Positions 227 through 14,017 of a stretch of DNA of 14,017 nucleotides are shown here, one piece after another. Origin of the DNA: Halobacteriales archaeon SW_9_67_25 (GTDB lineage: Archaea; Halobacteriota; Halobacteria; Halobacteriales; Haloarculaceae); assembly GCA_003022745.1 (NCBI GenBank), contig PXSU01000070.1, positions 1 to 14,017 of the forward strand, in the 5' to 3' direction. The stretch's first letter is position 1, and every line of letters begins with the position of its first letter. The notes under the pieces were generated by a model, which did no database searches, was not told the DNA's origin, and saw nothing but the letters and a program-made list of their open reading frames with translations. The position numbers and the translations under genes were made by a program.

Positions 227-248
227 TGTCGTATCAATTCAGTAGACA

Positions 249-256
249 TGAAAAAA
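249..256 (-). promoter_or_regulatory. T-rich TATA-like box, or terminator of cbiA
   Basis: On the minus strand this is a GGTTTTTT-like run centred about 26 nt before the ATG at 226, the spacing of an archaeal TATA box for a leaderless mRNA. A T-run in this position could also end the cbiA transcript, which is read in the same direction just upstream. The remainder of 257-337 shows nothing else. Confidence 0.35.
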
Positions 257-337
257 CCTTGTGGGGCGTCTTGCGTGCGACTATCGCCTGTCATCCGAGC
301 GATTGACACGCCTCTCAGCGTCCTCGCGGCGGCACGG

Positions 338-1651
338 TCAGGACTCGCTCGCCCACTCGACCAGCGCGTCGAAGGCGCCGCTTTCGGCGTGGCAGTGCGT
401 GTACTGACCCAGCGTCGCGTACTCGATCAGACCGTCCTGTTCCTCGTGTATGCCGTCGCCACGCTCGACGTCGAAGGCGAAGCTGGCGTCCCGGCCCACG
501 TCGGCCGTCGAGTAGTGGAACTCGTGGCCGCGGTAGGTGCCATCCGCCATCGGTTCCGGCGCGGTATCGGTCGCCACGAGTTCGACGTGGTCGAGGGCCT
601 GGTACCGGTCGTGCATCTCGACGGCTGCCGGGAGGACGCCGGCCATCCCGTGGGTCTCCCCGTCGGCCGTCGTCAGCGACTCCGCGAGTGCCATCATCCC
701 GCCACATTCGCCCAGCACGGGCACTCCATTCGCGGCCCTCTCGGCCAGCGTCGTCAGCGCCGGACTCCCGCTGAGACGGCCGGCGTGCAGTTCGGGGTAG
801 CCACCGGGCAGATAGACGCCGTCCGCGGGTGGGACGTCATCGCCCGCCAGCGGCGAGAACGTCTCGACGCCTGCCAGGTCCCGCAGTCGTTCGAGCGTCG
901 CCGGATACCAGAAAGAGAAGGCGCTGTCGCGTGCGACCGCGATCCGGAGCCCCTCTCGGTTTCTGGCAGGTAACTCCGACCGCTCGGGTCCGGGGGGTGC
1001 GCGGGCGATCGTGGCAATCCGGTCGGCCCGGACGGTTTCGGCGGCTTCGTCGAGGGCCTCGCGTGGCAGGGCCGCCTCCTCGCCCATGTGGAGGCCGAGG
1101 TGACGGTCCGGGATTTCCAGGTCCTCGCTGGGGGGAATACGCCCGAAGTAGGACAGTTCTTCGGGGAGAGCCTCGCGGATGCCCGCGGCGTGTCGCCCGC
1201 CGTGGGCCCGCTGGACGAGGACGCCGGCAACCTCGACGTCACGGCCGACCCGGTCGGCGAACTCGCGAAAGCCCAGCGCGGTCGCGGCGACGCTCTCCAT
1301 GCCGGCCTTCCCGTCGACGACGAGCACGACCGGGAGGTCCAGTGCCGCCGCGACCATGGCGGTGCTGGAGCCGTCGCCGTCGTAGAGTCCCATCACGCCC
1401 TCGACGACGCAGACGTCGCCGCTCCCGCGGTCGTAGTTGCGCCGCAGGCCCGCCTTGCCTTCGAGCCAGCAATCGAGGGTCCGGGAGGGGGTACCGGTGA
1501 TCGCCTCGTGGTGGCTCGGGTCGATGAAGTCCGGGCCGGCTTTCGCCGGCTGGACCGCGTAGCCCGCGGATTCGAGGGCTCGCATTGCGGCGAGGGCGGC
1601 GACGGTCTTCCCGACCCCGGAACTCGTCCCGCCGAGGACGACGCCCCTCAC
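338..1651 (-). CDS. cbiA: Cobyrinate a,c-diamide synthase CbiA
   Basis: CbiA amidates the a and c side chains of cobyrinate, using glutamine and ATP, in cobalamin synthesis in the cytoplasm. The 437-residue product has the normal family length and two-domain order. At the N-terminus is a dethiobiotin-synthetase-like ATPase with P-loop [10 protein letters not shown] (residues 7-16). Other conserved stretches are [14 protein letters not shown] (36-49) and EGVMGLYDG (84-92). At the C-terminus is a class I glutaminase domain with GGYPE (283-287), the nucleophile region LGECGG (Cys316), and His419/His421 in THCHAES. The start is GTG, read from 1651, sharing a GTGA overlap with the stop of the upstream cobT-like gene, so translation is probably coupled. 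The gene looks intact. A Ni-sirohydrochlorin diamide synthase role (CfbB) is known for homologues in methanogens but does not fit a haloarchaeon. Confidence 0.95.
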
Positions 1652-2569
1652 GGCTGCCCCTCCGGCGCACTCGCGAGGAGTCGGTCGGTCGCCGCGGCGA
1701 CCCGCTCGCGCACCGCCGGGAGAACGCCGGCACAGCCCGCGAGCGCCAGCGCGCCGCCCATCCCCACGCCCTCCTTGGCCTCGCCGGCGAGATATCCCTC
1801 GGTTGCGGGGTGGTCCAGTTCCTCGAACCCGGGGTCGGTGACGGTCACCTCGACGCCGAGTTCGGCAGCCAGTTCGTTGACGCTCGCACTCGGGTCGTCG
1901 GCGACGAAGGAGGTGGTCGCCAGAGAGAGCGTGCCCTCGGCGCCCGCGTGTCGGAGCAGTGCCGCGACCGCGAACATCTGGGTCCCGCCGGCGAGGGTCA
2001 CGGCTGTCCCGGACTCGCGGGCACCCAGCGCGAACCCGGCGGCTGTCGCGAGCACGGGGTCGCCCATCCGCCGGACCGCCAGTTCCGGGTCCCCGGCCGC
2101 GCCGCCACGGGAGAGGTCGCTGGCGTCGAGTCCCCTGGCGACGACCTCGCGCTTGCGTTCGATAGGGTTCTCGGGCAGTGAAGAGGACACCGACGCTGGT
2201 TCGCCCAGCGCGGTCAGCACACCCAGCGCGGTGGTCGTTCCGCCCGGAATCGTCTCCGCGACGAGCACCGACTCCTCCGGGATGGCACGCCCGAACTGCC
2301 GGGCCGCCGCGAAGACTCGCGAGGCCGCCGTCGACGACCGTCAGTGGAACGTCGAGTTCCTCCCTGACCGCCCGCGTCACGACGGCTGGCGTCGGTGTTC
2401 CGGCGGGGCTGACCGGCACCACCGGCGCGCGCACGGGCCGGCCGTACTCGAGTATCTCGGCGTCCGCACTCGGCGTGTGGGCCATCGCGGCCGGGTCCGC
2501 GCCGGCGGCGCTTATCCCCTCGATTCCCGCCGTGTGCGTGGTGCCAGCCACGAGGACCAGCCGCGTCAC
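1648..2569 (-). pseudogene. cobT: CobT-like nicotinate-nucleotide phosphoribosyltransferase, disrupted by an internal deletion/frameshift
   Basis: The family is the archaeal relative of CobT, which activates the lower-ligand base for cobalamin by moving phosphoribose from nicotinate mononucleotide. The first 84 codons from the GTG at 2569 match its N-terminus ([20 protein letters not shown], then [12 protein letters not shown], then [17 protein letters not shown], ending VVDGGLA). The rest of the family pattern is in another frame from about 2316 to the TGA at 1648 ([67 protein letters not shown]). The two halves total about 306 codons; relatives are about 335-345. The stretch normally between VVDAGL and the VFAAAR helix is absent, so about 75-85 nt seem lost, not a multiple of three. 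As written the protein cannot be made whole. Its stop overlaps the cbiA start. Family and frame change are clear; the deleted length is estimated from memory. Confidence 0.85.
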
Positions 2570-2607
2570 GCGCCGGCTCCCCCCGTGCTGTTCCGTCGCT
2601 CGGCCAT
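2566..2607 (-). CDS. Possible 13-codon leaderless mini-ORF ahead of cobT
   Basis: The first ATG downstream of the TTTAAA box (2635-2640) opens a 13-codon frame ([13 protein letters not shown]). Its TGA overlaps the GTG start of cobT as GTGA. With a TATA-to-start distance of about 26 nt, transcription would begin only a few bases before this ATG. A leaderless ribosome could therefore translate the mini-ORF and restart at cobT. It is short enough to be chance, and no conservation can be judged here. Confidence 0.3.
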
Positions 2608-2640
2608 AACTGCTTGTAGTTAGTGCAAGTGAGATTTAAA
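2608..2640 (-). promoter_or_regulatory. cobT-cbiA promoter with small inverted repeat
   Basis: A TTTAAA box at 2635-2640 is correctly placed for a start near 2611. Between the box and the first ATG lie overlapping short inverted repeats: TAACT-N6-AGTTA and CTTG-N9-CAAG. These would sit over the transcription start, a usual place for an archaeal repressor site. The TATA box is fairly convincing; the operator role is inference. Confidence 0.45.
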
Positions 2641-2671
2641 TGGCCCGGTGTCTCCAGAATCGGTCCGAACC

Positions 2672-2727
2672 TTCATAATCGGGAACGCGCCCACCGGTCC
2701 CTGCCGGGCGTCATCGCCCGGGGAAGG
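2672..2727 (+). promoter_or_regulatory. Promoter, 5' hairpin and Shine-Dalgarno of the ERCC4 nuclease gene
   Basis: TTCATAATC (2672-2680) is the best TATA-like box upstream of the ATG at 2730 and predicts a transcript starting near 2703. A perfect 7-bp stem follows at once: CCGGGCG (2704-2710), loop TCAT, CGCCCGG (2715-2721). Then comes a purine-rich GGGGAAGG (2720-2727) that can act as a Shine-Dalgarno site. The hairpin would lie at the extreme 5' end of the mRNA and shares its last bases with the ribosome site. Confidence 0.4.
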
Positions 2728-2729
2728 CA

Positions 2730-3281
2730 ATGTACCTCGCGACGATACTCAGAGACACGCGCGAACGACGGCCCTGGGAGTTCCGCCCCCATCCGGTCGA
2801 GACGCGGGACGTGACACTCTCGACGGGCGATTACACCGTCGCCGCGTGCTGCTCGCGGGACCCCGGGACCGGCACCTACCTCCCCGGGTTTGCCGTCGAA
2901 CGAAAGACCGGTCGGGACTTCCTGCACTCGATCACCTGGGAGCGCGAGCGCTTCGAGGCACAGGTCGGGCGGGCCGACGGGTGGCCCGAACCGCTCGCCG
3001 TTGTCGTCGAGGAGACCTGGGCGACCTTCACAGAGGGACGGGGGCCGATGCGCGGACGGGACGTCCATCCGGGCCAGGTCCGGGGGACCGTCGCGGCGTG
3101 GTCGGAGGCGTACAACGTCGAGTTCCGGTTCGTCGGCTCCCGGCGTGCGGGCGAACTGTACGCCCTGTGTCGGCTGCTCGGCCAGGAGATGGACGCGGGA
3201 CAGCGAGCGCCCGTCGTGTTCCGGCGGAAACTCGCGGCGCTATACCTGCTCGTACGCGCCGAGATGGGTTCCGTCGAGTAG
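2730..3281 (+). CDS. ERCC4-domain (XPF/Mus81-type) nuclease
   Basis: The 183-residue protein is essentially a single ERCC4 nuclease domain, the fold that cuts branched or flapped DNA in XPF, Mus81 and archaeal Hef. Visible motifs are ILRDTRERRPWEF (residues 6-18, Asp9), TGDYTV (Asp34) and the signature ERKTGRDF (Glu57, Arg58, Lys59, Asp63), followed by SITWERERFEAQ. All expected metal-binding and catalytic positions are present. There is no helicase domain and no clear helix-hairpin-helix domain, so DNA specificity may depend on partners. The ATG at 2730 follows a purine-rich ribosome site. The last 42 nt overlap the 3' end of rpe on the other strand. A repair role is inferred from the family and from the neighbouring RPA operon. 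Confidence 0.88.
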   Translation: MYLATILRDTRERRPWEFRPHPVETRDVTLSTGDYTVAACCSRDPGTGTYLPGFAVERKTGRDFLHSITWERERFEAQVGRADGWPEPLAVVVEETWATFTEGRGPMRGRDVHPGQVRGTVAAWSEAYNVEFRFVGSRRAGELYALCRLLGQEMDAGQRAPVVFRRKLAALYLLVRAEMGSVE

Positions 3282-3992
3282 GTACGCCTGCCCATCGCGG
3301 AGCGCCCCGGGGAGGAACGGCGACAGGAACTCCCGGCCGTGGACGTTCACCCAGGTGCCCCCCGAGCGGTCGTTGAACGCCGGGAACACGACGAGTTCCC
3401 CGGGAACCGCAACGTCCGCGTCGTAGTGTGTCCGGAACGGTGCGGGGTCGACGCCGCCCCGCAGCCAGACCCGCTCGACACGTCGGCCACCGACCTCGTC
3501 TTCCAGCCGGACGACAGGGTGTTCGTGGCCGAGACAGAGGACGTCGGCGGCCAGCACCGCCCGGTCGGGCCAGGTGTGTCCGTGCGCGAAGCCGACATCT
3601 CCCAGCCGGACTCCCCGTCCCGCCCCGACGGAGACCCGCTCGTGGTCCTCGAAGAGCGACTCGGCGCCGCTGTCGTGGTTGCCCCGGACCAGGGTCACGG
3701 GGACGCGCTCGGCGGCAGCCGCGAGCACCGATTCGATCTCCTCGCGCTCGTCCCGGCCCGGCTGGCCGATAGCGTGACCGAGGTCTCCCAGCACGACGAG
3801 CCTGTCCGGCCCGGTCCGGTCGAGCAGCGCGGTCAGCGCCGCAAGCCGGCCGTCGGCGTCGCTGTCGAGTTCGACTCCCTCGCGGCGCAGACCGGCCTCG
3901 ATGCCCGCGTGGTAGTCCGCGACGACGAGCGCGCGGTCCCCGTCACAGTCGACGAGCGCCGCGGGTTCTCCCGGAATCGGCTCGACGGCCAT
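3240..3992 (-). CDS. rpe: RPA-operon calcineurin-like phosphoesterase (Rpe)
   Basis: The 250-residue metallophosphoesterase keeps every signature of the family: DYH (Asp26, His28), GDLGH (Asp70), RGNHD (103-107), HGHT (137-140) and GHEH (155-158). These bind a two-metal centre that hydrolyses phosphate esters. It is the third gene of rpa1-rpap1-rpe, an order described in Haloferax volcanii, where such a phosphoesterase is encoded with RPA1 and its partner. Its substrate is not established; a nucleic-acid end or nucleotide is a reasonable guess. The start is the ATG at 3992, overlapping the rpap1 stop as TGATG; an in-frame upstream start at 4031 would lie inside rpap1 and adds a non-conserved basic tail. 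Its 3' end overlaps the ERCC4 nuclease gene by 42 nt. Confidence 0.9.
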   Translation of the reverse strand: MAVEPIPGEPAALVDCDGDRALVVADYHAGIEAGLRREGVELDSDADGRLAALTALLDRTGPDRLVVLGDLGHAIGQPGRDEREEIESVLAAAAERVPVTLVRGNHDSGAESLFEDHERVSVGAGRGVRLGDVGFAHGHTWPDRAVLAADVLCLGHEHPVVRLEDEVGGRRVERVWLRGGVDPAPFRTHYDADVAVPGELVVFPAFNDRSGGTWVNVHGREFLSPFLPGALRDGQAYLLDGTHLGAYEQV

Positions 3993-5647
3993 CAGATGGG
4001 CTTGAGCGTCGCGTCGTCGGGCTCGTAACACCGACCGTCCATCAGGGCGTCCTGGATGGCCGCCTCGACCGCCTCGGGGTCGACACCGTGCCTCTCGGCC
4101 GTCTCCTCGACGACCGCCCCGCGGTCCGCGCCGGCCCCGTCGTCGAGTTCGGTCATCACGTCGAGGGTCGCCTCTTCCAGGTCCACGTCGTCGGCCCCGT
4201 CGGCTTCCGTCCCTTCTCCGGTCTCCGAGGCCGTCCCGTCTGCCTCCGCCGTCGTACCGGCCGAATCCGCCGATTCTCCGTCCTCCCCGGTCGCTGCTGT
4301 GGCACTTTCCTCGACTGTCGATGGCCCGCCGTCCTCGACGTCTGTGGATTCCGCCGTCGCGTCGACGACACTCGCAGTGGTGTCGTCCTCTCCCATGGAC
4401 TGCTCGGGGTCGGGCGTCTCGATGTCTGCCTCCCCTGGTTCGTCGACCTCGGCCCCGCTCTGGAATTCGGTTCCGAACTCGGCCTCTATCTCCTCGCGCT
4501 CCTCGTCGTCGAGGTCGAACTCGCCAGGCTCGAAATCACCGACGTCGGCGGTCGCTTCGTCCGGGTCGGCCGCTTCGCCCGCAACCTCCGACTCGCTCGC
4601 GTCATCCGGTTCCCCGACTGCCGGGCTGCCCTCGTCCGGTCCGTCGACGTCCGCCTCGGTTTCATCCAGACTGTCGACCTCCGCTCCGGTCTCGTCTGGA
4701 CCGGCACTGGCCACGGGGGTCGCTTCGGCCTCCTCCACTGTCGCGGCGTCGCCGGCGGACTCTGCCGTGGATTCGGGTTCTGCCCCTGCAATCGGTTCGG
4801 CCACGTTGCCCCCAGAGTCCGTCGACGCTGTCATCGGTGTGTCGGCGTCGCCCTCCACGGACCCGGATTCACCTGTGTTCCCCGCGGACTCGCCGGCGTG
4901 GATGGTCGCCAGGTCGGCATACGCAGCGAGCGAGTCCGTATCGGCCTCTCCGGCGGCGTCCGGCGGCACCGAGACGGTATCCACTTCGTCGGTGTCGCCG
5001 GCGACGAGCCGTGCCGCGTCCAGGGCCATGTCGGCGACGGCCGAGAGGTACGCTGGCGACGTCCCGTAGTGATCGAGCGCGCGGACGATACCCGACGCGA
5101 ACCCCTCGTCGGCGCCGTCGGCCACGAGGGCAGTTTCGAGGTCGGTCCCGCTGCGGTCGCTGTGGATTGCCCTCGCCATCCAGCCGACACGCTGGAGCGT
5201 CCGTTCTGCCGTCCCGACGGTCCAGCGGTCCCGCGTGTCCGCGTCGACCTCGTTGATGATCTCCGGGCGGATCGAGGTGTAGACGCGGTCGGCGTCGTCG
5301 GGCTGGAACGTCCGGGCCTTGCCCGTCACGGCGACGAAGGTCGGCGTCTCGGCACCTTCGAGGAACGCCTGCTCGTCGGGCTGGTACTGGCCGGCGTAGA
5401 GGACGAACGCGCCGGTGGGGTCGACGACCCGCGCCCGGAGGACGTCCTCGCTGACCGCCTCGACTTCGGTGAGGACGCCCACGAAGAACGCCCGGTTGAC
5501 GCGCGCGCCGGTCGGCGTGACGACGTAGTTGGGGGCGCGCTCCTGCTCGCCCTCGGAGTAGGAGAGGTCGGCGTCATCGTACTCGGCGGCGAAGAGACGG
5601 TAGGCTATCTCGCGAGTGTTGGCCCCCTCGGAGGGCGCGTCGCTCAT
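3992..5647 (-). CDS. rpap1: RPA-associated protein Rpap1 (COG3390)
   Basis: The 551-residue partner of archaeal RPA forms a complex with the ssDNA-binding protein encoded upstream. The N-terminal domain (about 1-220) contains an OB-like stretch (about 40-135: RAFFVGVLTEVE, VVDPTGAFVLYAGQY, TFVAVTGKART) followed by helices. Then comes a very long acidic, Ser/Thr-rich linker (about 221-488), interrupted by a charged helix EFDLDDEEREEIEAEFGTEF (376-395). It ends in a small helical domain (about 489-551: LEEATLDVMTELDDG, GVDPEAVEAAIQDALMDG), probably winged-helix-like. The ATG at 5647 overlaps the rpa1 stop as ATGA, and GGAGGTG lies just upstream. Longer in-frame extensions run through rpa1 and are not real. 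Family assignment is firm; domain limits are by eye. Confidence 0.92.
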   Translation of the reverse strand: MSDAPSEGANTREIAYRLFAAEYDDADLSYSEGEQERAPNYVVTPTGARVNRAFFVGVLTEVEAVSEDVLRARVVDPTGAFVLYAGQYQPDEQAFLEGAETPTFVAVTGKARTFQPDDADRVYTSIRPEIINEVDADTRDRWTVGTAERTLQRVGWMARAIHSDRSGTDLETALVADGADEGFASGIVRALDHYGTSPAYLSAVADMALDAARLVAGDTDEVDTVSVPPDAAGEADTDSLAAYADLATIHAGESAGNTGESGSVEGDADTPMTASTDSGGNVAEPIAGAEPESTAESAGDAATVEEAEATPVASAGPDETGAEVDSLDETEADVDGPDEGSPAVGEPDDASESEVAGEAADPDEATADVGDFEPGEFDLDDEEREEIEAEFGTEFQSGAEVDEPGEADIETPDPEQSMGEDDTTASVVDATAESTDVEDGGPSTVEESATAATGEDGESADSAGTTAEADGTASETGEGTEADGADDVDLEEATLDVMTELDDGAGADRGAVVEETAERHGVDPEAVEAAIQDALMDGRCYEPDDATLKPI

Positions 5648-6918
5648 CCTCCCACCTCCGCGAGCAGCGCCCGGGCACGCTCGGCCGGGTCGTCGGTGGT
5701 CGCGGCGAACGACCGGGCATCGAGGTTGGCGCCGTAGTCGTCGACGCTTAACGACCCGCGAACGCGGAACTCCCGCCCGACCACCGTCCCGGCGATGGCG
5801 TCCGCGACCACCTCCCTGTCCATCGCGTCCCGGGCCGCCTCCTTCGCGTCCGCGACGCCGCCGCCGTACACCTCCTCGGTGAGGTCTTCCCCGAGGACGA
5901 CCGTCACCGTGCCGGTGCCGTCGTCGAGGATGGCCTTGGTCCGCAGGTCGTCCTCCGCGTCGACCTCGCCGTGGCTGCGACACTGCCCGTTCTGGACAAG
6001 CCGGCCACACGCGGGACACCGCTCGATGAGTCCCGACCCGTCCCGGAGGTCGATGACCGTCCCCACCAGTTCGACGTCGAACAGCCCGCCCGACTCGACT
6101 GCCGCCCGGACTGTGCGCTGCTGTGCCGAGTCGGTGGCCTCGACGCCCCCGTCGAGTCGCCGGACCGTCGAGAACTCCGAGACGTTCACCGACGGAACGC
6201 CGCGGAACTCCCGGACGAAGGCGTTCTCGACCCGGACCGACTCGCCCGTCTCGATGGTTTCGTGTGGGTCCCAGTCGGTAAAGGGGAGTCGGCCGCTCCC
6301 GTCGGCGAGGACGCCGCTGAGTATCTCTGTCTCGCCGTCACGGCCGTCGATGACTTTCGTCTCGCAGTCCTGGACGAGTCCCTCGACGTTGACGCCGCGG
6401 TCGCCTATCGACAGGCCGGCCAACTCGCGGTCGCCGCCGACATCGTAGGCCACGTCGAGCGAGTCCTCGACCAGTTCGACGCTCGTGCTCTCCCCGAGAT
6501 TGAGTTCCGGATCCCCCTCCCACTCGCGGACGCCGGCGTTGCCGACCCGGACCGTGATCCCGGGTTCGAGCCCGAAGTCCTCCCAGGCCGTATAAGATAT
6601 TTTACCGGTCTCGTCTGCCAGTTCACCCTCGAAGATAACGATCTCCTCGCCCTGGTACTGGATGGAGCGCTGCCCGACGGTCAGCAACACGCCGGTGACC
6701 GAGACGTTGCTGTCACCGGTCGTGACGTCGGCGACATCCCGCGTGGTGGGGGTCTCCCCCCCGCTGCCGGTGTCCTCGCCGTACTTGCGCCGCAGGCTCT
6801 GTTTTGCCTCGTCCATCGGCACGCTGTAGGAGACGAGGTTCTCCAGGTCGCGTTTGACCTCCTCTGTGTCGACGCCGAGGTCGGAGGCGAGGTCCTCGGC
6901 CTGGTCCTCGAGACTCAT
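5644..6918 (-). CDS. rpa1: Replication protein A, RPA1-type ssDNA-binding protein
   Basis: The protein coats single-stranded DNA during replication, recombination and repair. The 424-residue sequence has a short N-terminal helical region (1-50), three OB folds (about 70-150, 170-257 and 280-402) and a zinc-binding loop inside the third: CPAC-x8-C-x2-H (Cys301, Cys304, Cys313, His316). Length and architecture match haloarchaeal RPA1 better than the shorter RPA3, and the two following genes (rpap1, rpe) match the RPA1 operon. The start ATG at 6918 has a TATA-like box about 27 nt upstream, consistent with a leaderless mRNA. No damage is visible. It probably acts as a complex with Rpap1 because the stop and start codons of the two genes overlap. 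Confidence 0.94.
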   Translation of the reverse strand: MSLEDQAEDLASDLGVDTEEVKRDLENLVSYSVPMDEAKQSLRRKYGEDTGSGGETPTTRDVADVTTGDSNVSVTGVLLTVGQRSIQYQGEEIVIFEGELADETGKISYTAWEDFGLEPGITVRVGNAGVREWEGDPELNLGESTSVELVEDSLDVAYDVGGDRELAGLSIGDRGVNVEGLVQDCETKVIDGRDGETEILSGVLADGSGRLPFTDWDPHETIETGESVRVENAFVREFRGVPSVNVSEFSTVRRLDGGVEATDSAQQRTVRAAVESGGLFDVELVGTVIDLRDGSGLIERCPACGRLVQNGQCRSHGEVDAEDDLRTKAILDDGTGTVTVVLGEDLTEEVYGGGVADAKEAARDAMDREVVADAIAGTVVGREFRVRGSLSVDDYGANLDARSFAATTDDPAERARALLAEVGG

Positions 6919-6942
6919 ACACCCGGATTGGTCCCGCCCCCA

Positions 6943-6948
6943 CTAAAA
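6943..6948 (-). promoter_or_regulatory. TATA box of the rpa1-rpap1-rpe operon
   Basis: TTTTAG on the minus strand is centred about 27 nt before the rpa1 ATG, the standard spacing for a leaderless archaeal transcript. It lies in the 39-nt gap after the preceding small membrane-protein gene, so the operon can be transcribed independently. Confidence 0.6.
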
Positions 6949-6957
6949 GCGTTCACG

Positions 6958-7200
6958 TCACTCCTCGTCCTCGGGTGTTTCCACGACGCGGCCCCCCACC
7001 CGTTCGAGGATGGCCGCGGGGATGTCTGTCGGCGAGGTAATCGCTTCCTCGAAGACCACGACCCCCACCGCGAGGGCGAGAAAGAGAACGCCGAGCAAGG
7101 GGGCGCCTTCCGCGAACTTGAACAGGCCAAAGGCGGCGACGGGCACGGCGACGACGACGCTCGCCGCGAACTGGAGCGTCCCGATCAGGCCCTTCGACAT
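6958..7200 (-). CDS. Small two-helix membrane protein
   Basis: The 80-residue protein has two predicted membrane helices (about 8-28, QFAASVVVAVPVAAFGLFKF; about 34-50, PLLGVLFLALAVGVVVF) and an acidic C-terminal tail ending PEDEE. After the second helix comes SPTDIPAAILERV, a short amphipathic stretch. It has the look of small uncharacterised haloarchaeal DUF membrane proteins; I cannot name the family safely. It starts 2 nt after the stop of another two-helix protein (7203-7448) and lies just ahead of the rpa1 promoter. The function is unknown. The two neighbours have the same layout and a similar SPT-acid motif, so they may be diverged copies. Confidence 0.8.
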   Translation of the reverse strand: MSKGLIGTLQFAASVVVAVPVAAFGLFKFAEGAPLLGVLFLALAVGVVVFEEAITSPTDIPAAILERVGGRVVETPEDEE

Positions 7201-7202
7201 GG

Positions 7203-7448
7203 TCAGAGGAGAGTGCGGACCTCGTCCGCGAACTCGGTCGGCGAGTAGATGTTTCGAATAACGATCTCCAGGGTTCCGCCCGTGCCGGAGGCGACACGGA
7301 CGATGACGAAGGCTCCGAAGGCGAGCACTGGCAGTCCCACCTGGTTCGGGACGAGAGAATTGGGATCGGCCACGTACACGTAGCCACCACCCAGCGCGAA
7401 CGGCGCACCGAGCACTGCACTCCAGAGAGCCGGTAATCCCCGTGCCAT
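7203..7448 (-). CDS. Small two-helix membrane protein
   Basis: The 81-residue protein has two predicted membrane helices (about 7-26 and 37-52) followed by a helical tail containing IYSPTEFADEVRTLL. The ATG at 7448 is preferred over an upstream start at 7484, because a strong GGAGGGTGA ribosome site (7454-7462) lies 5 nt before it and the extra residues (MESPTRCWRVID) overlap the upstream gene. It sits 2 nt before the next small membrane-protein gene and directly behind the propeller gene, so the three are likely co-transcribed. No function is known to me. Confidence 0.8.
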   Translation of the reverse strand: MARGLPALWSAVLGAPFALGGGYVYVADPNSLVPNQVGLPVLAFGAFVIVRVASGTGGTLEIVIRNIYSPTEFADEVRTLL

Positions 7449-7449
7449 A

Positions 7450-7566
7450 TCAATCACCCTCCAGCATCTGGTAGGCGATTCCAACCACTGACAGGAGAAA
7501 GCCCAGCGTCGTCAAATTGAGCGGGTTCGTTCCCGGAGTTCGAAAAAAAGCCCCGCTGGCGGCCAT
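7450..7566 (-). other. Shifted-frame C-terminal membrane segment of the propeller gene, or separate 38-residue ORF
   Basis: In the alternative minus-strand frame an ATG at 7566 opens 38 codons ending at a TGA at 7450, one base before the next gene. The product is MAASGAFFRTPG, then a likely membrane helix (LNLTTLGFLLSVVGIAYQML), then EGD. Codon third positions look haloarchaeal in this frame after the T7 run and in the main frame before it. The simplest reading is that this is the anchor of the propeller protein, separated by a one-base change in the T7 run. A separate overlapping microprotein gene is possible. Confidence 0.55.
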
Positions 7567-8146
7567 CCGCGTCCTGGGCGCCCCCAGTGGCGTCTCCGGA
7601 CGCCCCCGTGCTCTCTGCGTCACCCGACGGCTGGCTCGCAGTCTCCGCGTCTCCTGTCTGCTGTGTGTCGCTCGTTTCCTGGTCCGAACCGGTCCGTATC
7701 GCGATCACATCCAGTCCGGCCAGGACAAAGAGCGTGCCCCCGGAGAGTGCCATGGGATCGAACGCCTGTCCGGTTTCCAGGCGCCAGCGTTCCTCCCCTG
7801 TCTGGACATCCAGCCCGTATATCGTGCCTCCCGAACTCCCGGCGATGACGAGTTCCTCTGTCATCGCAGGCCCCGTGGATTCGGTCTCTCCGACAGTCTC
7901 GAAGCGCCATATCTCGTCCCCGCTCTCGCTGTCCAGGCCGTACACGTTCCCGGCGGCGTCGCCCTGGTACATCGGCCAGCCGGAGTCCGGTACTGCACGA
8001 GGATCCGAGTCACTGCTCTGGTACTGTGTCTCCACAAGTCGGCCTGTTCCTGCCGTCTGTGTCTCCCGACCGGCACCCTGTCGCCGGCGCCACAATCCAC
8101 TGGTCGGCAACAGTACAGAGCCGTGCAGGAAATCCCGTCTGTTCAT
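7454..8146 (-). CDS. PQQ-like beta-propeller repeat protein, shortened and frameshifted (probable pseudogene)
   Basis: The product resembles secreted haloarchaeal beta-propeller proteins built of PQQ-like repeats (GNVYGLDSESGDEIWRF; GGTIYGLDVQTGEERWRL). Only two to three blades remain, where relatives usually have about seven or eight. WPMYQGDAA (57-65), which normally opens the propeller, runs straight into a late repeat at residue 66, as if the middle had been removed in frame. The N-terminus MNRRDFLHGSVLL is Tat-like but lacks a good hydrophobic core. A low-complexity Gln/Ser/Asp/Gly linker follows from about residue 153. After the run of seven T (coding strand; 7543-7549) the listed frame loses haloarchaeal third-position GC, while another frame encodes a membrane helix. 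ATG 8146 fits the promoter better than the GTG at 8173. The protein is probably non-functional, or its C-terminus needs slippage. Confidence 0.65.
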   Translation of the reverse strand: MNRRDFLHGSVLLPTSGLWRRRQGAGRETQTAGTGRLVETQYQSSDSDPRAVPDSGWPMYQGDAAGNVYGLDSESGDEIWRFETVGETESTGPAMTEELVIAGSSGGTIYGLDVQTGEERWRLETGQAFDPMALSGGTLFVLAGLDVIAIRTGSDQETSDTQQTGDAETASQPSGDAESTGASGDATGGAQDADGRQRGFFSNSGNEPAQFDDAGLSPVSGWNRLPDAGG

Positions 8147-8383
8147 AAAATCCTTTACACTGATAGAATTCACCAGTAGTTGATAAATATTATCTAGATT
8201 TTATGATGTTTTTTCGGTCTCCGGTGACACTTCTTTCTTCCCCCGACGGCACCGGCCTCTGACTGCTGGCAAGGCAGCCCACAATCCCGACCAGGGGGTC
8301 CCTAGCCACAGGATTCGTCGAGATGACAGGCTCCTTTGCGGGCGAAACGAGATGTTATTACTCGCGCAACGAAACACACAGAT
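8147..8383. promoter_or_regulatory. AT-rich divergent promoter region
   Basis: This is the least GC-rich stretch of the window near its left side. On the minus strand GATAATATTTATC (8182-8194), a near-perfect palindrome with GATAA/TTATC arms, acts as the TATA region of the propeller gene and predicts a start about 16 nt before ATG 8146. On the plus strand TTATTA (8355-8360) is 26 nt before the DsbA-like ATG at 8384 and fits a leaderless mRNA. I see no gene between 8195 and 8350. Confidence 0.5.
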
Positions 8384-9109
8384 ATGGATAGAGCCGCTCG
8401 AGGATACTCGAGACGCTGCGCATTGAGAGTGGTGGGGGGTGCAACTCTGGGAGTTCTGGCCGGCTGTACCGGTGGTTCTGGAGCCAGTGGTGATGGCGAG
8501 AGCGGGAACGAGGGGGGAAGCGGAGACGGGGAAACCGACGCGCCGGGGACACCCATCGGGGAGCAACTCCCGGCACCGGTGAAAGGCGACGCCGACGCGG
8601 ACGTCACCCTCGCCGTCTTTGAGGACTACGCCTGCCCGCACTGTGCCGACTACAACGTCGAGGGGTTCCCCGAACTGGCCGCGGAGTACGTCGACCCGGG
8701 CGAGATCAGGTACGAGCACCGCGACCTGCCGATTCCGGTGGCCGATCCGGGCTCTTTCCAGGCCGCCAACGCGGCCCGCGCGGTCCAGGACCGCCACGGT
8801 GACGAGGCCTTCTGGGAGTATGCTGCAGTGTTGTTCGAGCGCTCCGGCGAGATTCCGGGTGGAGCACCCGACATCTTCGGGACCATCGCCGACGAACAGG
8901 GGCACGACAGCGAGGCCATCCGCGCTGCTGCAGCCGACCGGGTCTACGAGGGAACCGTCCAGGCCGACCGCGAGGAGGGGGTCGAACTGGGCGTCGAGGC
9001 CACCCCGTCGTTCGTGCTGGACGGCGAGGTGGTCGCCTCTGGGTACGGGTCCGGCACGGTCGAGGAGGTGTCGGCCGCGATCGAGGCGGCGCTGTCCGAA
9101 ACTGGCTAA
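8384..9109 (+). CDS. DsbA-family thioredoxin-fold lipoprotein
   Basis: The 241-residue protein is exported and lipid-anchored. It has a twin-arginine SRR near the N-terminus, a hydrophobic stretch and a lipobox LAGC (Cys28), then a Gly/Ser/Asp/Glu-rich tether (29-57). The thioredoxin-fold domain carries CPHC (84-87) after VTLAVFEDYA, and the matching cis-proline segment EATPSFVLDGE near the C-terminus. It should make, break or rearrange disulfides on proteins outside the membrane. All motifs are intact. The start is the ATG at 8384, 26 nt after a TATA-like box; an upstream TTG frame adds no signal features. The trm56 gene follows after 24 nt with no obvious promoter, so they may share a transcript. 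Confidence 0.9.
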   Translation: MDRAARGYSRRCALRVVGGATLGVLAGCTGGSGASGDGESGNEGGSGDGETDAPGTPIGEQLPAPVKGDADADVTLAVFEDYACPHCADYNVEGFPELAAEYVDPGEIRYEHRDLPIPVADPGSFQAANAARAVQDRHGDEAFWEYAAVLFERSGEIPGGAPDIFGTIADEQGHDSEAIRAAAADRVYEGTVQADREEGVELGVEATPSFVLDGEVVASGYGSGTVEEVSAAIEAALSETG

Positions 9110-9133
9110 CCCGGCGAGTCCCTCCCCTGAGAC

Positions 9134-9673
9134 ATGCAGGGGACACCCGAGGTGGCGGTGTTGCGCCTGGGCCACCGGCCGGGCCGGGACGAGCGGATGA
9201 CGACCCACGTCGGGCTGACGGCCCGCGCGCTGGGGGCCGACCGCGTCGTCTTGGCCGGCGAGGGCGCCAGCCGCCAAGACACTGTCGAGGACATCACCGA
9301 GCGGTTCGGCGGCCCCTTCGCCGTCGGGACGACCGACAGCCCACACGCGCTCTTCGGGGGCTGGGACGGCGACGTCGTCCACCTGACGATGTACGGACTT
9401 CCGGTCCAGAACGTACAAGACGACATCCGGACCGCCTTCGAGACCGGAACGCCCCTTCTTGTCGTCGTCGGCGCCGGAAAAGTCCCTTTCGAGGTCTACG
9501 AGGCCGCCGACCACAACGTCGCCGTCACGAACCAGCCCCACTCGGAGGTGGCCTCGCTGGCCGTCTTCCTCGACCGACTCTACGAGGGCCAGGAACTCGA
9601 CCGCGAGTGGGAGGACACCGAGCAGGTGGTCGTCCCCCAGGCGACGGGCAAGCGAGTCGAAACCGACGGATAA
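9134..9673 (+). CDS. trm56: tRNA (cytidine(56)-2'-O)-methyltransferase Trm56
   Basis: This SPOUT-class enzyme puts a methyl group on the ribose of C56 in the tRNA T-loop, using S-adenosylmethionine. The 179-residue sequence has the family's opening (VAVLRLGHRPGRDERMTTHV, residues 7-26) and VVHLTMYG. It also has the C-terminal knot region that binds the cofactor (LLVVVGAGKVPFEVYE, then NVAVTNQPHSEVASLAVFLDRL). Length is normal and nothing is missing. The ATG at 9134 precedes the conserved N-terminus by only a few residues, so the start is secure. Two strong hairpins follow the stop and probably end the transcript. Confidence 0.93.
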   Translation: MQGTPEVAVLRLGHRPGRDERMTTHVGLTARALGADRVVLAGEGASRQDTVEDITERFGGPFAVGTTDSPHALFGGWDGDVVHLTMYGLPVQNVQDDIRTAFETGTPLLVVVGAGKVPFEVYEAADHNVAVTNQPHSEVASLAVFLDRLYEGQELDREWEDTEQVVVPQATGKRVETDG

Positions 9674-9706
9674 GACCGGCCCGCGAGCGAAGCGAGCGGG
9701 CCGGTC
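9674..9706 (+). terminator. Hairpin 1 after trm56 (11-bp stem)
   Basis: GACCGGCCCGC (9674-9684) and GCGGGCCGGTC (9696-9706) are perfectly complementary around an 11-nt loop, GAGCGAAGCGA. The stem starts on the base after the trm56 stop codon. It lacks a T-run, so a role in mRNA 3'-end processing or stability is as likely as termination. Confidence 0.5.
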
Positions 9707-9740
9707 GCCAGGACAGCAGGCGGGTAGCGGTAGGCGGTAG

Positions 9741-9767
9741 AAAACGGCGAGCGAAGCGAGCCGTTTT
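9741..9767 (+). terminator. Hairpin 2 after trm56 (8-bp stem ending in TTTT)
   Basis: AAAACGGC (9741-9748) and GCCGTTTT (9760-9767) pair around the same 11-nt loop, GAGCGAAGCGA, as the preceding hairpin. The A-run and T-run make it a plausible terminator in both directions. Together the two hairpins separate trm56 from the tfe promoter. Confidence 0.5.
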
Positions 9768-9777
9768 GTGGCGATGG

Positions 9778-9783
9778 TTTTAA
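9778..9783 (+). promoter_or_regulatory. TATA box of the tfe operon
   Basis: TTTTAA is centred about 28 nt before the tfe ATG at 9809, so transcription should start within a few bases of the start codon. Confidence 0.6.
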
Positions 9784-9808
9784 CAGCGACAGAGCCCGAG
9801 CGAATGTA

Positions 9809-10261
9809 ATGGCTTTTGAGGAACTCCTGGAGGACCCGGTCATACAGAAGTACCTCCACGAACTCGTCGGGCCCAAGGGGATGCCCGTCGCGGCGGCGCC
9901 GCCGGACGGCGAGGGGACCGAGAGTTACCGCCGGTTGCGCGACGAGGACTCGGGCTGGCTCACCTACCTCTGGACCTTCGAGTACGACAAGGTCCCCGAG
10001 CAACTCGAGGAGGAGATGCACCGGCTGCTGGCGGGCCTGGATGAGCGCCGGGAATACGAGCAGACCCACGAGTTCTACCTCTGTGAGAACTGTGGCATCC
10101 GCTTCGAGTTCGGCGAGGCGATGGACGTCGGCTTCGAGTGCCCCCAGTGTGGGTCCGGGCTGGAGACCATGGAGAACACGCGGCTGGTCGATGCGATGGA
10201 GGAGCGCATTGGGGCGTTGCGGGACGAACTCAACGTCGAGTCGGTGGACGTCGAGGGCTGA
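9809..10261 (+). CDS. tfe: Transcription initiation factor TFE (alpha), lacking most of the winged helix
   Basis: TFE helps RNA polymerase, TBP and TFB open the promoter. The 150-residue sequence has the exact family N-terminus (DPVIQKYLHELVGPKGMPVA), the region after the winged helix (YRRLRDEDSGWLTYLWTFEY) and the zinc ribbon (Cys92, Cys95, Cys111, Cys114). The helical C-terminus is also present. Between PPDGE (31-35) and YRR (40-42) only GTES remains. Haloarchaeal relatives, as I recall them, have about 31 residues there (like TDEELAEELDLELNDVRRAL and LYENDLA), forming the core helices of the winged-helix domain. About 27 residues therefore seem missing, in frame. The protein may be impaired, or the sequence may be misassembled here. 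The ATG at 9809 is supported by the conserved MAFEELL start. The stop overlaps the DUF2110 gene start as TGATG. Confidence 0.9.
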   Translation: MAFEELLEDPVIQKYLHELVGPKGMPVAAAPPDGEGTESYRRLRDEDSGWLTYLWTFEYDKVPEQLEEEMHRLLAGLDERREYEQTHEFYLCENCGIRFEFGEAMDVGFECPQCGSGLETMENTRLVDAMEERIGALRDELNVESVDVEG

Positions 10262-10926
10262 TGGTCGTCCTCGCAACCAAGGTGTACGTGTCGGGCGACG
10301 CCAGCGAGCGCGCGCTCTCCGGCCTGGATGCGATGGTCGCGGAGGAGTTCGGTGACCTGGACGTGACCTACGAGGTCGGCCTCCGCGACGACGGCTTCCC
10401 GTCGGTGACCGTCGAGGGGCCGGATGCGACCGTCGGGCGCAACCTCCTCCGGGAGCGGTGGGGAGCCATCACACCACACCTCGAGGAAGGTGCCGTCCAC
10501 GTCGGGACCCTCGAATCCTGGGACGAGGACGGGTTCGTCCTCGACGCCGGCGAATCGGTGCGTATCCCAACCGGCGAACTGGGACTCGGCCCCGGCTTAC
10601 CGTCCCAGGTCCGGACGCGCTTTGGCCTCGTCCAGCACCTCCCACTGCGGTTCGTGGCGGGCGAGGTGCCCCGGCTCGCAGACGCCGAGCGCGACCGCCT
10701 CTTCGAGTGGAGGCGGGGGCCCGGCAGGGTGAACGTCAACAGCGCGACGCGCTCGGAGATCCGGGCGACGGTCAACCGCGCGGGCCACGCCGAGGACGTC
10801 GTCACCGTCGAACGGCTGGGCCTCCTCGAGGGGAGTATCGTCTGTCGCGAGGGGACCGACCCGCCCGGCCTGCTCGCGAGTATCGGCGAGTACCTGCCCG
10901 CGGAACTGCTCTGTGTCGTGCCATGA
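10261..10926 (+). CDS. DUF2110 family archaeal protein
   Basis: The 221-residue cytoplasmic protein follows tfe with a TGATG overlap, an arrangement I recall as common in haloarchaea, which suggests a link to transcription. Its biochemical function is not known. By eye there is an N-terminal alpha/beta part (1-75), then an S1/OB-like stretch (GTLESWDEDGFVLDAGESVR, 82-101, then IPTGELGLG). A conserved GLVQHLPLRFV (122-132) follows, and then VNVNSATRSEIRATVNRAG (157-175), which resembles one helix-hairpin-helix unit. These resemblances would fit nucleic-acid binding but are inference. The length is normal and the gene is intact. The start at 10261 is set by the overlap; an upstream frame from 10138 lies inside tfe. 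Confidence 0.85.
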   Translation: MVVLATKVYVSGDASERALSGLDAMVAEEFGDLDVTYEVGLRDDGFPSVTVEGPDATVGRNLLRERWGAITPHLEEGAVHVGTLESWDEDGFVLDAGESVRIPTGELGLGPGLPSQVRTRFGLVQHLPLRFVAGEVPRLADAERDRLFEWRRGPGRVNVNSATRSEIRATVNRAGHAEDVVTVERLGLLEGSIVCREGTDPPGLLASIGEYLPAELLCVVP

Positions 10927-11681
10927 ACAGGCGCGTCCTCGCGGGGCTGGCACTGGTCGCCGTTCTCCTGCTTGCGGGGTGTTTTGGCCCCTCGGAGATT
11001 CCCGAAGAGGACCTGACTGGCGAGGCGAGTTACGACTGGGAGACCAACGCCACGACGACGTTCAATCTCTCGCGGTCCTCCTACACCACGGTCGTCGAGA
11101 TACAGAACCGGACCGAACTGACCGTCTGGCAGCGCGACCGGCTGGGCACGGACAACCCGGTCGACCTCCAGGCGCTCCAGTTCCGGTTCGAGAACGGGAC
11201 GGTCGTCAACGCCACGCAGGCGAACCTCTCTGCGACGCGCACGGGTGACAACACCGTCATCGACCTCCCGGCCGAGAACGGGACGGTCGCCTACACCGCC
11301 GCCCGGACGGGCAAGCGGTTCAGCGCGCCCGCATTCGTCGAGGGCAGTTACGAACTGCTACTGCCACCCTCGACACGGATCGGCGTCCCGCTGCTCTCCC
11401 AGGCCAGCCCCGGCGGCTACTCGACGAGCGTCTCCGAGGACCGCATGACCGTCAGGTGGGACGAAGTGTCCGACGGGACGCTGACGGTCCGGTACTACCT
11501 CCAGCGGGACCTCCTGCTGTTTGGCGGCCTGGCAGCCATCGTACTCCTCGCGGGTGGGGGCGGGTCGGTGTACTACCTCTGGCAACTCCGGACGCTGGAG
11601 GAGCGGCGCAAACAGATGGGTGACGACATCGACTACGACGAGGACCCCCGCGACGACGGGCCGCCGCCGGGGATGGGCTAA
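10923..11681 (+). CDS. DUF5803-like membrane-anchored lipoprotein
   Basis: The 252-residue protein has a lipoprotein signal (RRVLAGLALVAVLLLAGC, Cys20) and an extracellular domain. A C-terminal membrane helix (about 197-219, LLLFGGLAAIVLLAGGGG) is followed by a charged cytoplasmic tail (LEERRKQMGDDIDYDEDPRD). The outer domain carries seven Asn-x-Ser/Thr sites (Asn42, 48, 62, 91, 96, 101, 119), so heavy N-glycosylation is likely. It overlaps the DUF2110 stop as ATGA and is the third gene of the tfe operon. I believe this is the haloarchaeal family DUF5803, but the number is from memory and the function is unknown. The gene looks complete. Confidence 0.8.
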   Translation: MNRRVLAGLALVAVLLLAGCFGPSEIPEEDLTGEASYDWETNATTTFNLSRSSYTTVVEIQNRTELTVWQRDRLGTDNPVDLQALQFRFENGTVVNATQANLSATRTGDNTVIDLPAENGTVAYTAARTGKRFSAPAFVEGSYELLLPPSTRIGVPLLSQASPGGYSTSVSEDRMTVRWDEVSDGTLTVRYYLQRDLLLFGGLAAIVLLAGGGGSVYYLWQLRTLEERRKQMGDDIDYDEDPRDDGPPPGMG

Positions 11682-11716
11682 CTCACGGGCGCAGGGTCGC
11701 CCGTGTGAACAGAGAG

Positions 11717-11723
11717 GTTTTAC
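11717..11723 (+). promoter_or_regulatory. TATA box of the cinA-like gene
   Basis: The run GTTTTAC is centred about 26 nt before the ATG at 11746, which fits a leaderless transcript. The short gap 11682-11745 holds nothing else. Confidence 0.55.
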
Positions 11724-11745
11724 CGGCTCGGCCGCAGGGTGTAGT

Positions 11746-12330
11746 ATGCGCGTCGCGCTCGTGTGTGTCGGCGACGAGTTGCTCGCCGGCGACACCGTCA
11801 ACACGAACGCCGCCTGGCTGGGCCGACGGCTCGGCGAGCGCGGCGTCACTGTCGGGCGCGTCTCGGTCGTCACGGACCGGGTGGCCGACATCGCCCGCGT
11901 CGTCAACGAGCCCCGCGCGGAGTACGACGCGGTCATCGTCACCGGTGGCCTCGGCCCCACACACGACCTCGCCGAGGGCACCGCCGACATCCCCGCAGAC
12001 GCGGAGATGCTCCCGAACCCCGAGGGCGTCGCTCCGGGCTGTATCGTCGAGGATGTCTACGTCCTGCCCGGGGTGCCGGCCGAGATGAAGGCGATGTTCG
12101 AACTTGTGGCCGGAGATTTCGCCGGCCAGCAGCGGTACGTCGAGACGATGACCGTCGACGAACCCGAGAGCGCGCTCGTCGACCGCTTTACCGACCTCCG
12201 CGAGCGCTACGACGTGCGCGTGGGCAGTTACCCCGGCGAAACCGTGCGTGTGAAGATCCACGGCACGGACCGCGGTGCCGTCGAGGAGGCCGCCAGGTGG
12301 CTCCGCGAGCGGGTCGAGGTCGCCGAGTAG
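11746..12330 (+). CDS. CinA-like molybdopterin-binding-domain protein, internally shortened
   Basis: The protein belongs to the competence/damage-inducible CinA N-terminal (MoaB/Mog-like) family. The start (RVALVCVGDELLAGDTVNTN, residues 2-21), VIVTGGLGPTHD (63-74), YVLPGVPAEMKAMF and VGSYPGETVRVKIHG are all conserved. It has 194 residues, where haloarchaeal relatives I recall have about 230-240. After GPTHD the usual DDVTM helix and the next 35 or so residues are absent, and the chain resumes at LAEGTADIP. The lost block carries the acidic DDxT-type active-site part of the MoaB-like fold, so activity is doubtful. The deletion is in frame, at about 11965-11970. The family role (pyrophosphatase or nicotinamide-nucleotide-related in other CinA proteins) cannot be transferred with confidence. 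Confidence 0.82.
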   Translation: MRVALVCVGDELLAGDTVNTNAAWLGRRLGERGVTVGRVSVVTDRVADIARVVNEPRAEYDAVIVTGGLGPTHDLAEGTADIPADAEMLPNPEGVAPGCIVEDVYVLPGVPAEMKAMFELVAGDFAGQQRYVETMTVDEPESALVDRFTDLRERYDVRVGSYPGETVRVKIHGTDRGAVEEAARWLRERVEVAE

Positions 12331-12339
12331 CGCGGCCGG

Positions 12340-12456
12340 CTACCGGTAGAGGTAGTCGAGCCAGAGTGCCGTCAACAGGAGACCGCCGAGCCCGACGACC
12401 CAGCCCGAGAGAGCGACGACGCCCTCGTTGACGCCGGCTTGCAGGAGTGCGCTCAT
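12340..12456 (-). CDS. 38-residue single-helix membrane microprotein
   Basis: The minus-strand ATG at 12456 opens a 38-codon frame ending in TAG at 12340. The product starts MSALLQAGVNEG, continues with a clear membrane helix (about 13-33, VVALSGWVVGLGGLLLTALWL) and ends in DYLYR. A TATA-like CTCTTAG (12481-12487) is about 28 nt upstream, correct for a leaderless mRNA, and third codon positions are GC-rich. It is divergent from the NAD kinase-like gene and convergent with the cinA-like gene. I recall similar short proteins in haloarchaeal genomes, but its role is unknown. Confidence 0.7.
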   Translation of the reverse strand: MSALLQAGVNEGVVALSGWVVGLGGLLLTALWLDYLYR

Positions 12457-12480
12457 GCGTCCGGGTGGGCCGCCCGCGGT

Positions 12481-12504
12481 CTAAGAGGTTCCGGTTGGCT
12501 TTTG
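12481..12504. promoter_or_regulatory. Divergent promoters for the microprotein and the NAD kinase-like gene
   Basis: On the minus strand CTCTTAG (12481-12487) serves the 38-residue microprotein. On the plus strand CTTTTG (12499-12504), about 26 nt before the ATG at 12528, serves the kinase gene. The two boxes are only about 12 nt apart, so the units may compete or be co-regulated. Confidence 0.45.
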
Positions 12505-12527
12505 CGGGCAGCGACCCTACGACGCGT

Positions 12528-13601: not shown

Positions 13602-13615
13602 GCGTCGACAGTCCG

Positions 13616-13642
13616 GGCAGTGCCGTCCGGCCGGACCCTGCC
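13616..13642 (+). terminator. Palindromic hairpin after the NAD kinase-like gene
   Basis: A perfect 12-bp palindrome GTCCGGCCGGAC (13625-13636) is flanked by a further complementary pair, GGCAG (13616-13620) and CTGCC (13638-13642). It lies 15 nt after the stop codon. No T-run follows at once, so it could be a processing or stability element or a protein-binding site. Confidence 0.35.
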
Positions 13643-13700
13643 GCGCTCGCCTACCCATGACCTTTGATATTCTGGATGGAAATTTAGGGCATTAACACAA

Positions 13701-13733: not shown

Positions 13734-14017
13734 TGGAAACGAGGAAGGTCCAGCGACTGGGGCCGTCGACGCTCGCGATGACGCTCCCGGCGGAGTGGGC
13801 CCACGCCCACGACGTCGAGAAAGGTGACGAGGTGTCGCTGCGCGTCGGCGACAAGGGCGCACTGACCGTGATGCCCGAGTCGGTGACGACAGAAGAGTCC
13901 GAGGCAGTCATCAGTGCGACGGGCTTCGGCGCGGACGCCGTCGAGCGGGCCATCGTCGGCGAGTACGTCCTCGGCCGCCGGATCATCCACGTCGAGGCCG
14001 CGGAGGGCGAGACCCTG
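13733..14017 (+). CDS. PhoU-type phosphate uptake regulator with AbrB-like N-terminus, partial
   Basis: The window ends after 95 in-frame codons. The start METRKVQRLGPSTLAMTLP, followed by AEWAHAHDVEKGDEVSLRV, is the SpoVT/AbrB swapped-hairpin DNA-binding domain (about 1-47) that haloarchaea place before PhoU helical domains. The next part (VERAIVGEYVLGRRIIHVE) matches the region leading into PhoU. Such proteins regulate phosphate-uptake genes. The helical PhoU bundles lie beyond the window, so completeness cannot be judged. The start is supported by the promoter spacing and the conserved METRK opening. Confidence 0.88.
   Translation, partial: METRKVQRLGPSTLAMTLPAEWAHAHDVEKGDEVSLRVGDKGALTVMPESVTTEESEAVISATGFGADAVERAIVGEYVLGRRIIHVEAAEGETL

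What the first reader, a model, noticed from the sequence alone, without database searches (positions are those of the whole stretch)
1648..12330. Four genes in one window each lack a clean internal block
cobT, the propeller gene, tfe and the cinA-like gene keep strongly conserved sequence on both sides of a sharp junction but miss the expected middle: about 75-85 nt, an unknown larger block, about 81 nt and about 105 nt respectively. Neighbouring genes look full length. Four such losses in 14 kb, one in a basal transcription factor, are far more than expected. Either this lineage suffers short deletions (perhaps between small direct repeats) or the assembly dropped segments. Sizes are from remembered family alignments.
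Basis: partly seen in the sequence, partly recalled or inferred. Interest (0 to 1): 0.72.

Follow-up and report, generated by a model that had tools for sequence, protein, structure and literature searches.

The report
Assembly dropped short gene blocks
The gene pieces missing from this salt-loving archaeon were most likely lost during genome assembly, where contigs were joined across small unsequenced gaps, rather than deleted in the living organism.

Summary
Three of the four reported losses are real features of the deposited sequence: cobT 86 nt (frameshifting), tfe 81 nt, cinA-like 105 nt, each the same size against a same-genus genome (G001) and a complete same-family chromosome (G014). 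The fourth (propeller) could not be measured and stays open. Full-length TFE (177 aa) and CobT (335 aa) with nearly identical flanks, probably the same species, exist in JGI metagenomes. The losses are not special to these genes: among 150 orthologs in 371 kb of this 57.5%-complete draft, nine clean losses without Ns plus one at an N-run stand against one in the other direction; 78 named genomes show no clean loss around tfe. The main clue is the marked gaps: the window ends at 112 Ns where both relatives have 222 nt, and all 4 of 6 N-runs that could be measured are 44-125 nt too short, close to the size of most losses. Some joints sit on short chance overlaps, which in this coding DNA are mostly in codon phase, so the in-frame excess needs no selection. 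Best reading: contig ends joined across underestimated gaps. No reads were available, so this is inferred. One blindly chosen 20-kb stretch shows no clear excess of losses.

The parts
1648..2569 (-). cobT (nicotinate mononucleotide-dependent phosphoribosyltransferase, TIGR00303 family); N-terminal part in one frame (about 2318-2569), C-terminal part (1648-2313) in another
   Evidence: P0121, 335 aa: 79 of 79 N-terminal and 200 of 206 C-terminal residues identical; names from the listing
2314..2317 (.). joint 1: 86 nt absent, frameshift
   Evidence: same size against G001 and G014
7454..8146 (-). PQQ-type propeller gene, 230 aa
7948..7960 (.). suspected joint 4; a loss is neither shown nor excluded
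9809..10261 (+). tfe (transcription factor E, alpha subunit), 150 aa instead of 177
9921..9922 (.). joint 2: 81 nt absent, in frame; 27 residues from within the TFIIE_alpha (winged-helix) domain are missing
   Evidence: Pfam TFIIE_alpha matched at 25-103 in P0002 and only at 58-103 here
11746..12330 (+). cinA-like gene (MoCF_biosynth domain), 194 aa
11963..11967 (.). joint 3: 105 nt absent, in frame, on a short repeat (ACGAC)
13605..13659 (.). intergenic stretch 108 nt shorter than in G001; not a sharp joint
14000..14017 (+). end of the window: last bases before an N-run of 112 in contig C70 (14018-14129), where G001 and G014 both have 222 nt

Best explanation
The blocks are assembly losses. 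The genome is a fragmentary draft (178 contigs, 57.5% complete, N-runs inside contigs). Shown: the N-runs that could be measured are 44-125 nt shorter than the distance in relatives, and further joints without Ns lack most often 70-170 nt. Inferred: a scaffolding or gap-closing step underestimated gap lengths; where the estimate fell to about zero or below, it butted or merged the two contig ends, in part at chance overlaps of a few nucleotides, so the unsequenced block vanished without Ns. The living organism most likely has ordinary full-length cobT, tfe and cinA-like genes.
For: (1) Near-identical full-length proteins: TFE P0002, 177 aa, 35 of 35 residues before and 111 of 112 after the joint; CobT P0121, 335 aa, 79 of 79 and 200 of 206. 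(2) One-sided beyond this window: 150 orthologs against G014 in 41 stretches, 24 blocks of 36 nt or more absent here and 5 absent in G014; with clean flanks 10 (9 without Ns, 1 at an N-run) against 1. (3) Controls, same test: 78 named genomes around tfe, 371 orthologs, 85,050 aa: 1 loss, 17 gains; clean 0 losses, 9 gains, where about 20 clean losses would be expected at this genome's rate; G001, 56 orthologs: 3 losses, 5 gains, no clean loss where about 3 would be expected, a weak control. (4) N-run deficits 110, 44, 125 and 72 nt in 4 measurable of 6 N-runs; 110 and 72 repeat against G014. (5) Equal losses against both relatives at cobT, tfe, cinA, L075:7780 (87) and L071:12153 (81), and 98/97 at L214:3544, so the change lies in this genome. 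(6) Overlap of 10 nt or more at 5 of 16 joints, 8.8% in simulation, p 0.01; chance overlaps are 66-84% in codon phase. (7) Lost blocks have GC broadly like their flanks and, one excepted, ordinary folding energy. (8) tfeA is most likely essential in Haloferax volcanii: all 129 colonies examined kept it (PMC5861453, passages).
Against: No reads were available. L077, the only one of seven G001-compared stretches picked without knowing of an event or N-run, has 3 sharp losses (all within 330 nt of one place, one of them repeat-rich) against 2 gains: no clear excess. One of the 21 sharp losses, L075:793 (83 nt), is a copy of a dispersed repeat present in G001 and so probably a real difference. 7 of 16 joints show no overlap, and the rank test on overlaps is not significant (p 0.10). 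Four sharp losses are 273-733 nt, too large for an underestimate of about 100 nt. In-frame losses exceed one third (11 of 21, p 0.056; 11 of 20 without the repeat, p 0.04), which selection on real deletions could also cause. Assembler and library are unknown.
Confidence: 0.84

Rival explanations
1. Other technical loss: deletions made during whole-genome amplification or library PCR, or by graph simplification in a mixed-strain sample, then carried into the consensus.
For: 57.5% completeness with 0.01% contamination would also suit a single amplified genome (inference); short repeats at some joints; the same-genus draft G001 is itself broken inside tfe, two contigs sharing exactly 141 nt there.
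Against: Does not by itself explain why the measured N-runs are too short by similar amounts. No common hairpin or GC signature in the lost blocks.
Confidence: 0.11
2. Real recent deletions: the lineage loses short blocks between small direct repeats, and the genes are truly broken.
For: Overlaps at some joints; 11 of 21 losses keep the frame.
Against: One sharp loss per about 3-15 kb would break a large share of the genes, among them tfe, whose Haloferax counterpart could not be deleted. Near-identical proteins are intact. N-runs show a size bias of the same order. The frame excess is expected from the codon rhythm of chance overlaps.
Confidence: 0.04
3. Ancestral short variants of these proteins.
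For: None found.
Against: All 37 other genomes with a tfe match (39 genomes searched, the own one included) show the match in two parts with DNA between them; all 36 other genomes with a cinA match do too; 78 of 78 named tfe orthologs and 45 of 45 cinA orthologs show no loss.
Confidence: 0.01

Closest known systems
Negative or under-predicted scaffold gaps (PMC3504050, passages seen)
   Same: Scaffold gap sizes that are wrong, scaffolds joined wrongly, and under-predicted gap sizes suspected among the causes of over-filled gaps
   Different: There the gaps were still marked in the drafts; here most are inferred to be closed without Ns, inside genes of an archaeal draft
Spurious pseudogenes from low-coverage assembly (PMC11017572, passages seen)
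   Same: Intact genes look broken because of the assembly; a high count marks a poor assembly
   Different: The passages seen count frameshifts and internal stops; in-frame block losses as in tfe and cinA would escape such a count (my inference)

Membership tests
Scaffolding / gap-closing artefact | Losses spread over the assembly, not tied to a gene or function | tested here: met
   clean losses on 8 of the 41 stretches examined (C70 and seven others); but L077 alone shows no clear excess
Scaffolding / gap-closing artefact | Marked gaps in the same assembly are mis-sized in the same direction and by similar amounts | tested here: met
   4 of 4 measurable N-runs (of 6 in the stretches compared) short by 44-125 nt; 2 repeat against G014
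Scaffolding / gap-closing artefact | Joints enriched for short chance overlaps | tested here: inconclusive
   5 of 16 at 10 nt or more, p 0.01; rank test p 0.10
Scaffolding / gap-closing artefact | Few or no reads cross the joint and pairs span it at too great a distance | not testable with these tools
   no reads held
Real microhomology-mediated deletion in the lineage | Independent sequence of the same population has the deletion | tested here: not met
   near-identical P0002 and P0121 are full length; proteins only, and not for certain the same strain
Real microhomology-mediated deletion in the lineage | Losses spare essential genes or keep frame because of selection | tested here: inconclusive
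   tfe is hit and cobT is frameshifted; a frame excess exists but chance overlaps predict one too
Ancestral short variant | Relatives share the short form | tested here: not met

The most novel reading that the evidence does not exclude
A haloarchaeal strain that is accumulating short, microhomology-bounded deletions across its whole genome, including a basal transcription factor, while same-species cells keep intact genes.
Probability: 0.04. Interest if true: 0.8.

Novelty: not a real feature. Interest (0 to 1): 0.1.

Why it matters
As biology it most likely does not. As quality control it is a warning: in a public draft genome about half of the sharp losses keep the reading frame (11 of 21), so a gene caller would report ordinary-looking short proteins, such as a TFE that lacks 27 residues of its winged-helix domain. 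Anyone who mines such drafts for domain losses or minimal proteins could be misled, and checks that look only for frameshifts or stops would miss these.

Tried and rejected
Blocks moved elsewhere in the genome: the full TFE protein searched in the own genome finds the two flanks and one weak match elsewhere (E 0.078, 40% identity over residues 37-104), not the block; not tested for the other genes. Hairpins or extreme GC in the lost blocks: no consistent signal; one block, L075:793, folds strongly (z -5.8) and is a copy of a dispersed repeat. Ancestral variants: rejected. Naming the genome: the genome contigs answer says records of it may be left out, so its source and assembler are unknown. 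Close propeller ortholog: none found.

Dropped rows and limits. In the G001 table rows were typed by hand, collinear and mostly higher-scoring rows only. Of its 46 neighbouring pairs, 4 hold an N-run, 22 are sharp losses here, 6 are sharp gains here, and 14 are not sharp (9 with this genome shorter, 5 with it longer). Of the 22 I leave out one in low-complexity DNA (4828/4810, 60 nt) when I say 21. Of the 6, one is low-complexity (4571/4691) and two coincide with dispersed repeats. Six of the seven stretches were taken because they are the finding (C70), held a G014 event (L071, L075) or an N-run (L206, L214, L216), so the G001 rate is biased upward; only L077 was blind. The G014 count (41 stretches) is not chosen that way, except that C70 is among them, but with clean flanks it misses frameshifting losses such as cobT. 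Three more N-runs look short against G014 (104, 93, 54 nt) but their flanks are poor and I do not count them. For two of the four measured N-runs (L216) some unaligned bases beside the Ns are part of the gap (6 and 48 nt). For the overlap test 16 of 21 joints were used: L077:1779 left out as repeat-rich, L077:1547 not resolved apart from its neighbour, and three L214 joints without DNA. The 78-genome control covers one region of about 12 kb and leaves out L231 and L232, which are G001 and G014.

Full report
What the window is. It is contig C70, bases 1-14017 of 26,809, of a draft haloarchaeal genome (G000: 1,786,328 bases, 178 contigs, 57.52% complete, 0.01% contamination).

The observation. 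A blastn of the window against five relatives breaks at 2314/2317, 9921/9922 and 11963-11967. Base-level alignments give a loss of 86 nt in cobT, 81 nt in tfe and 105 nt in the cinA-like gene, the same against G001 and G014. For tfe, all 37 other genomes with a match have the two flanks apart (38 of 39 genomes match, the own one included), and the own protein is the only 150-aa one among the best 120 listed of 750 database matches (the other listed lengths are 172-213). For the cinA-like gene, all 36 other genomes with a match show it in two parts (37 of 39 match, the own one included). For the propeller no close ortholog was found in 58 genomes. A G014 paralog has about 44 residues between the motifs that touch here, but Pfam aligns through the joint and four listed matches run through it. 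I leave it open.

Not ancestral, and very recent or unreal. The database holds a 177-aa TFE (P0002, JGI metagenome) that differs from the window's at one of the 147 residues that can be compared outside the joint, and a 335-aa CobT (P0121) with 79 of 79 and 200 of 206 identical residues. Both are probably from the same species (inference). The window's TFE also carries a V-to-G change two codons from the joint, as an error-prone contig tip or imprecise merge might leave (inference from one case; the residue that differs beside the CobT joint also occurs in G014, and says nothing).

Genome-wide test. I took 40 further contig stretches of G000 (with C70 370,854 nt in 41 pieces) and 1.6 Mb of G014. 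With G014 proteins against G000 DNA, 150 orthologs were paired: 24 blocks of 36 nt or more are absent in G000 and 5 are absent in G014; with at least 12 of 20 identical residues on both sides, 10 against 1. One of the 10 is the N-run at C70:14018, so 9 are joints without Ns (55, 72, 81, 81, 81, 87, 87, 105, 115 nt). The reverse search (142 pairs) gives 20 against 5. The same protocol gives, on 78 named genomes around tfe (371 orthologs, 85,050 aa), 1 loss and 17 gains, clean 0 and 9, where this genome's rate would give about 20 clean losses; and on G001 (56 orthologs) 3 losses, 5 gains and no clean loss, where about 3 would be expected, so that control is weak.

Against G001 at DNA level, seven G000 stretches (66,677 aligned nt) hold 22 sharp losses without Ns and 6 in the other direction; 14 further pairs are not sharp, 9 with this genome shorter and 5 with it longer. 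Leaving out one low-complexity case, the sizes are 72, 81, 81, 83, 84, 86, 87, 97, 98, 105, 127, 146, 150, 151, 157, 168, 171, 273, 313, 453 and 733 nt. The 83-nt one (L075:793) is a copy of a dispersed repeat in G001 and probably a real difference. Six of the seven stretches were chosen because they are the finding, held an event or held an N-run. The one blind stretch, L077, has 3 sharp losses, all close together and one repeat-rich, against 2 gains, so it does not show the excess by itself. The rate lies between about one per 15 kb of aligned coding DNA (G014 set) and one per 3 kb (G001 set, biased upward).

The clue to the mechanism. G000 has 11 N-runs (21-181 nt) in the 371 kb. The window ends where one starts: 112 Ns stand where G001 and G014 both have 222 nt. 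Of 6 N-runs in the stretches compared with G001, 4 could be measured; all 4 are too short, by 110, 44, 125 and 72 nt, and 110 and 72 repeat against G014. If these Ns were masks put in by operators, the length would be kept; it is not. So marked gaps in this assembly are mis-sized by about what most of the joints without Ns lack. The simplest account is one process: gap lengths estimated too small, with gaps estimated at or below zero closed without Ns.

Joints. Seen against G001, several joints fall on short direct repeats: overlap of 10 nt or more in 5 of 16, against 8.8% of 399 simulated random joints (p 0.01); 7 of 16 have none, and the full rank test is weaker (p 0.10). Chance overlaps 45-180 nt apart are frequent (10 nt with at most one mismatch: 16 per kb) and 66-84% of the kinds tested are in codon phase. 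A mix of merges at such overlaps and blunt joins therefore predicts a frame excess like the 11 of 21 observed (p 0.056 against one third; 11 of 20 and p 0.04 without the repeat copy), without selection. Lost blocks have GC broadly like their flanks and, one excepted, ordinary folding energy.

Function check. The 27 lost TFE residues lie inside Pfam TFIIE_alpha (profile 25-103 of 105 matched in P0002, only 58-103 here), a part that aligns without a break to a solved TFE structure (6pln). tfeA could not be deleted in Haloferax volcanii: all 129 colonies examined kept it (PMC5861453, passages). A dividing haloarchaeon with this TFE and with a broken gene every few kb is improbable.

Literature. 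Negative and under-predicted scaffold gaps (PMC3504050, passages) and spurious pseudogenes from low coverage (PMC11017572, passages) are described; PMC5368935 (passages) notes negative gap sizes in ALLPATHS-LG scaffolds. Five searches (listings) showed no paper that I could tie to this genome's losses; I could not search for the genome by name, which I do not know.

Verdict.

Noticed in passing
C70 16694-16781 (L061:2677-2764), also L206:1667-1754; part of it at L077:11600-11640: A dispersed, partly palindromic repeat of about 88 nt (64 of 88 positions equal to its own reverse complement) with some 30 places listed in the same-genus genome G001, matching on both strands; looks like a small non-autonomous element. 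One of the supposed losses (L075:793) is a copy of it.
   Followed up: partly
window 9683-9697 and 9747-9761: Two exact copies of GCGAGCGAAGCGAGC between the preceding gene and tfe; 4 copies in 371 kb of G000, 1 in 1.6 Mb of G014; G001 has one at the same place.
   Followed up: partly
window 7454-7560 (-): Another frame after a run of seven A/T reads NPLNLTTLGFLLSVVGIAYQMLEGD and stops just before the next gene: the propeller gene may change frame near its C terminus (possible homopolymer error).
   Followed up: no
L062 1-141 and L063 1-141 (G001 C140 and C177): In the same-genus genome the contigs break inside tfe and share exactly 141 nt, as if at a branch of an assembly graph with k of 141.
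   Followed up: no
window 7200-8562: The stretch with small membrane-protein genes, the propeller gene and the start of a DsbA-like gene (labels recalled, apart from the propeller) has no aligned counterpart in G001, which holds 397 nt there; recent gain here or loss there.
   Followed up: no
L071:11822 and L071:1355-3318: Larger differences from G001 (733 nt absent; 1,884 nt extra); may be real gain or loss, or larger mis-joins.
   Followed up: no
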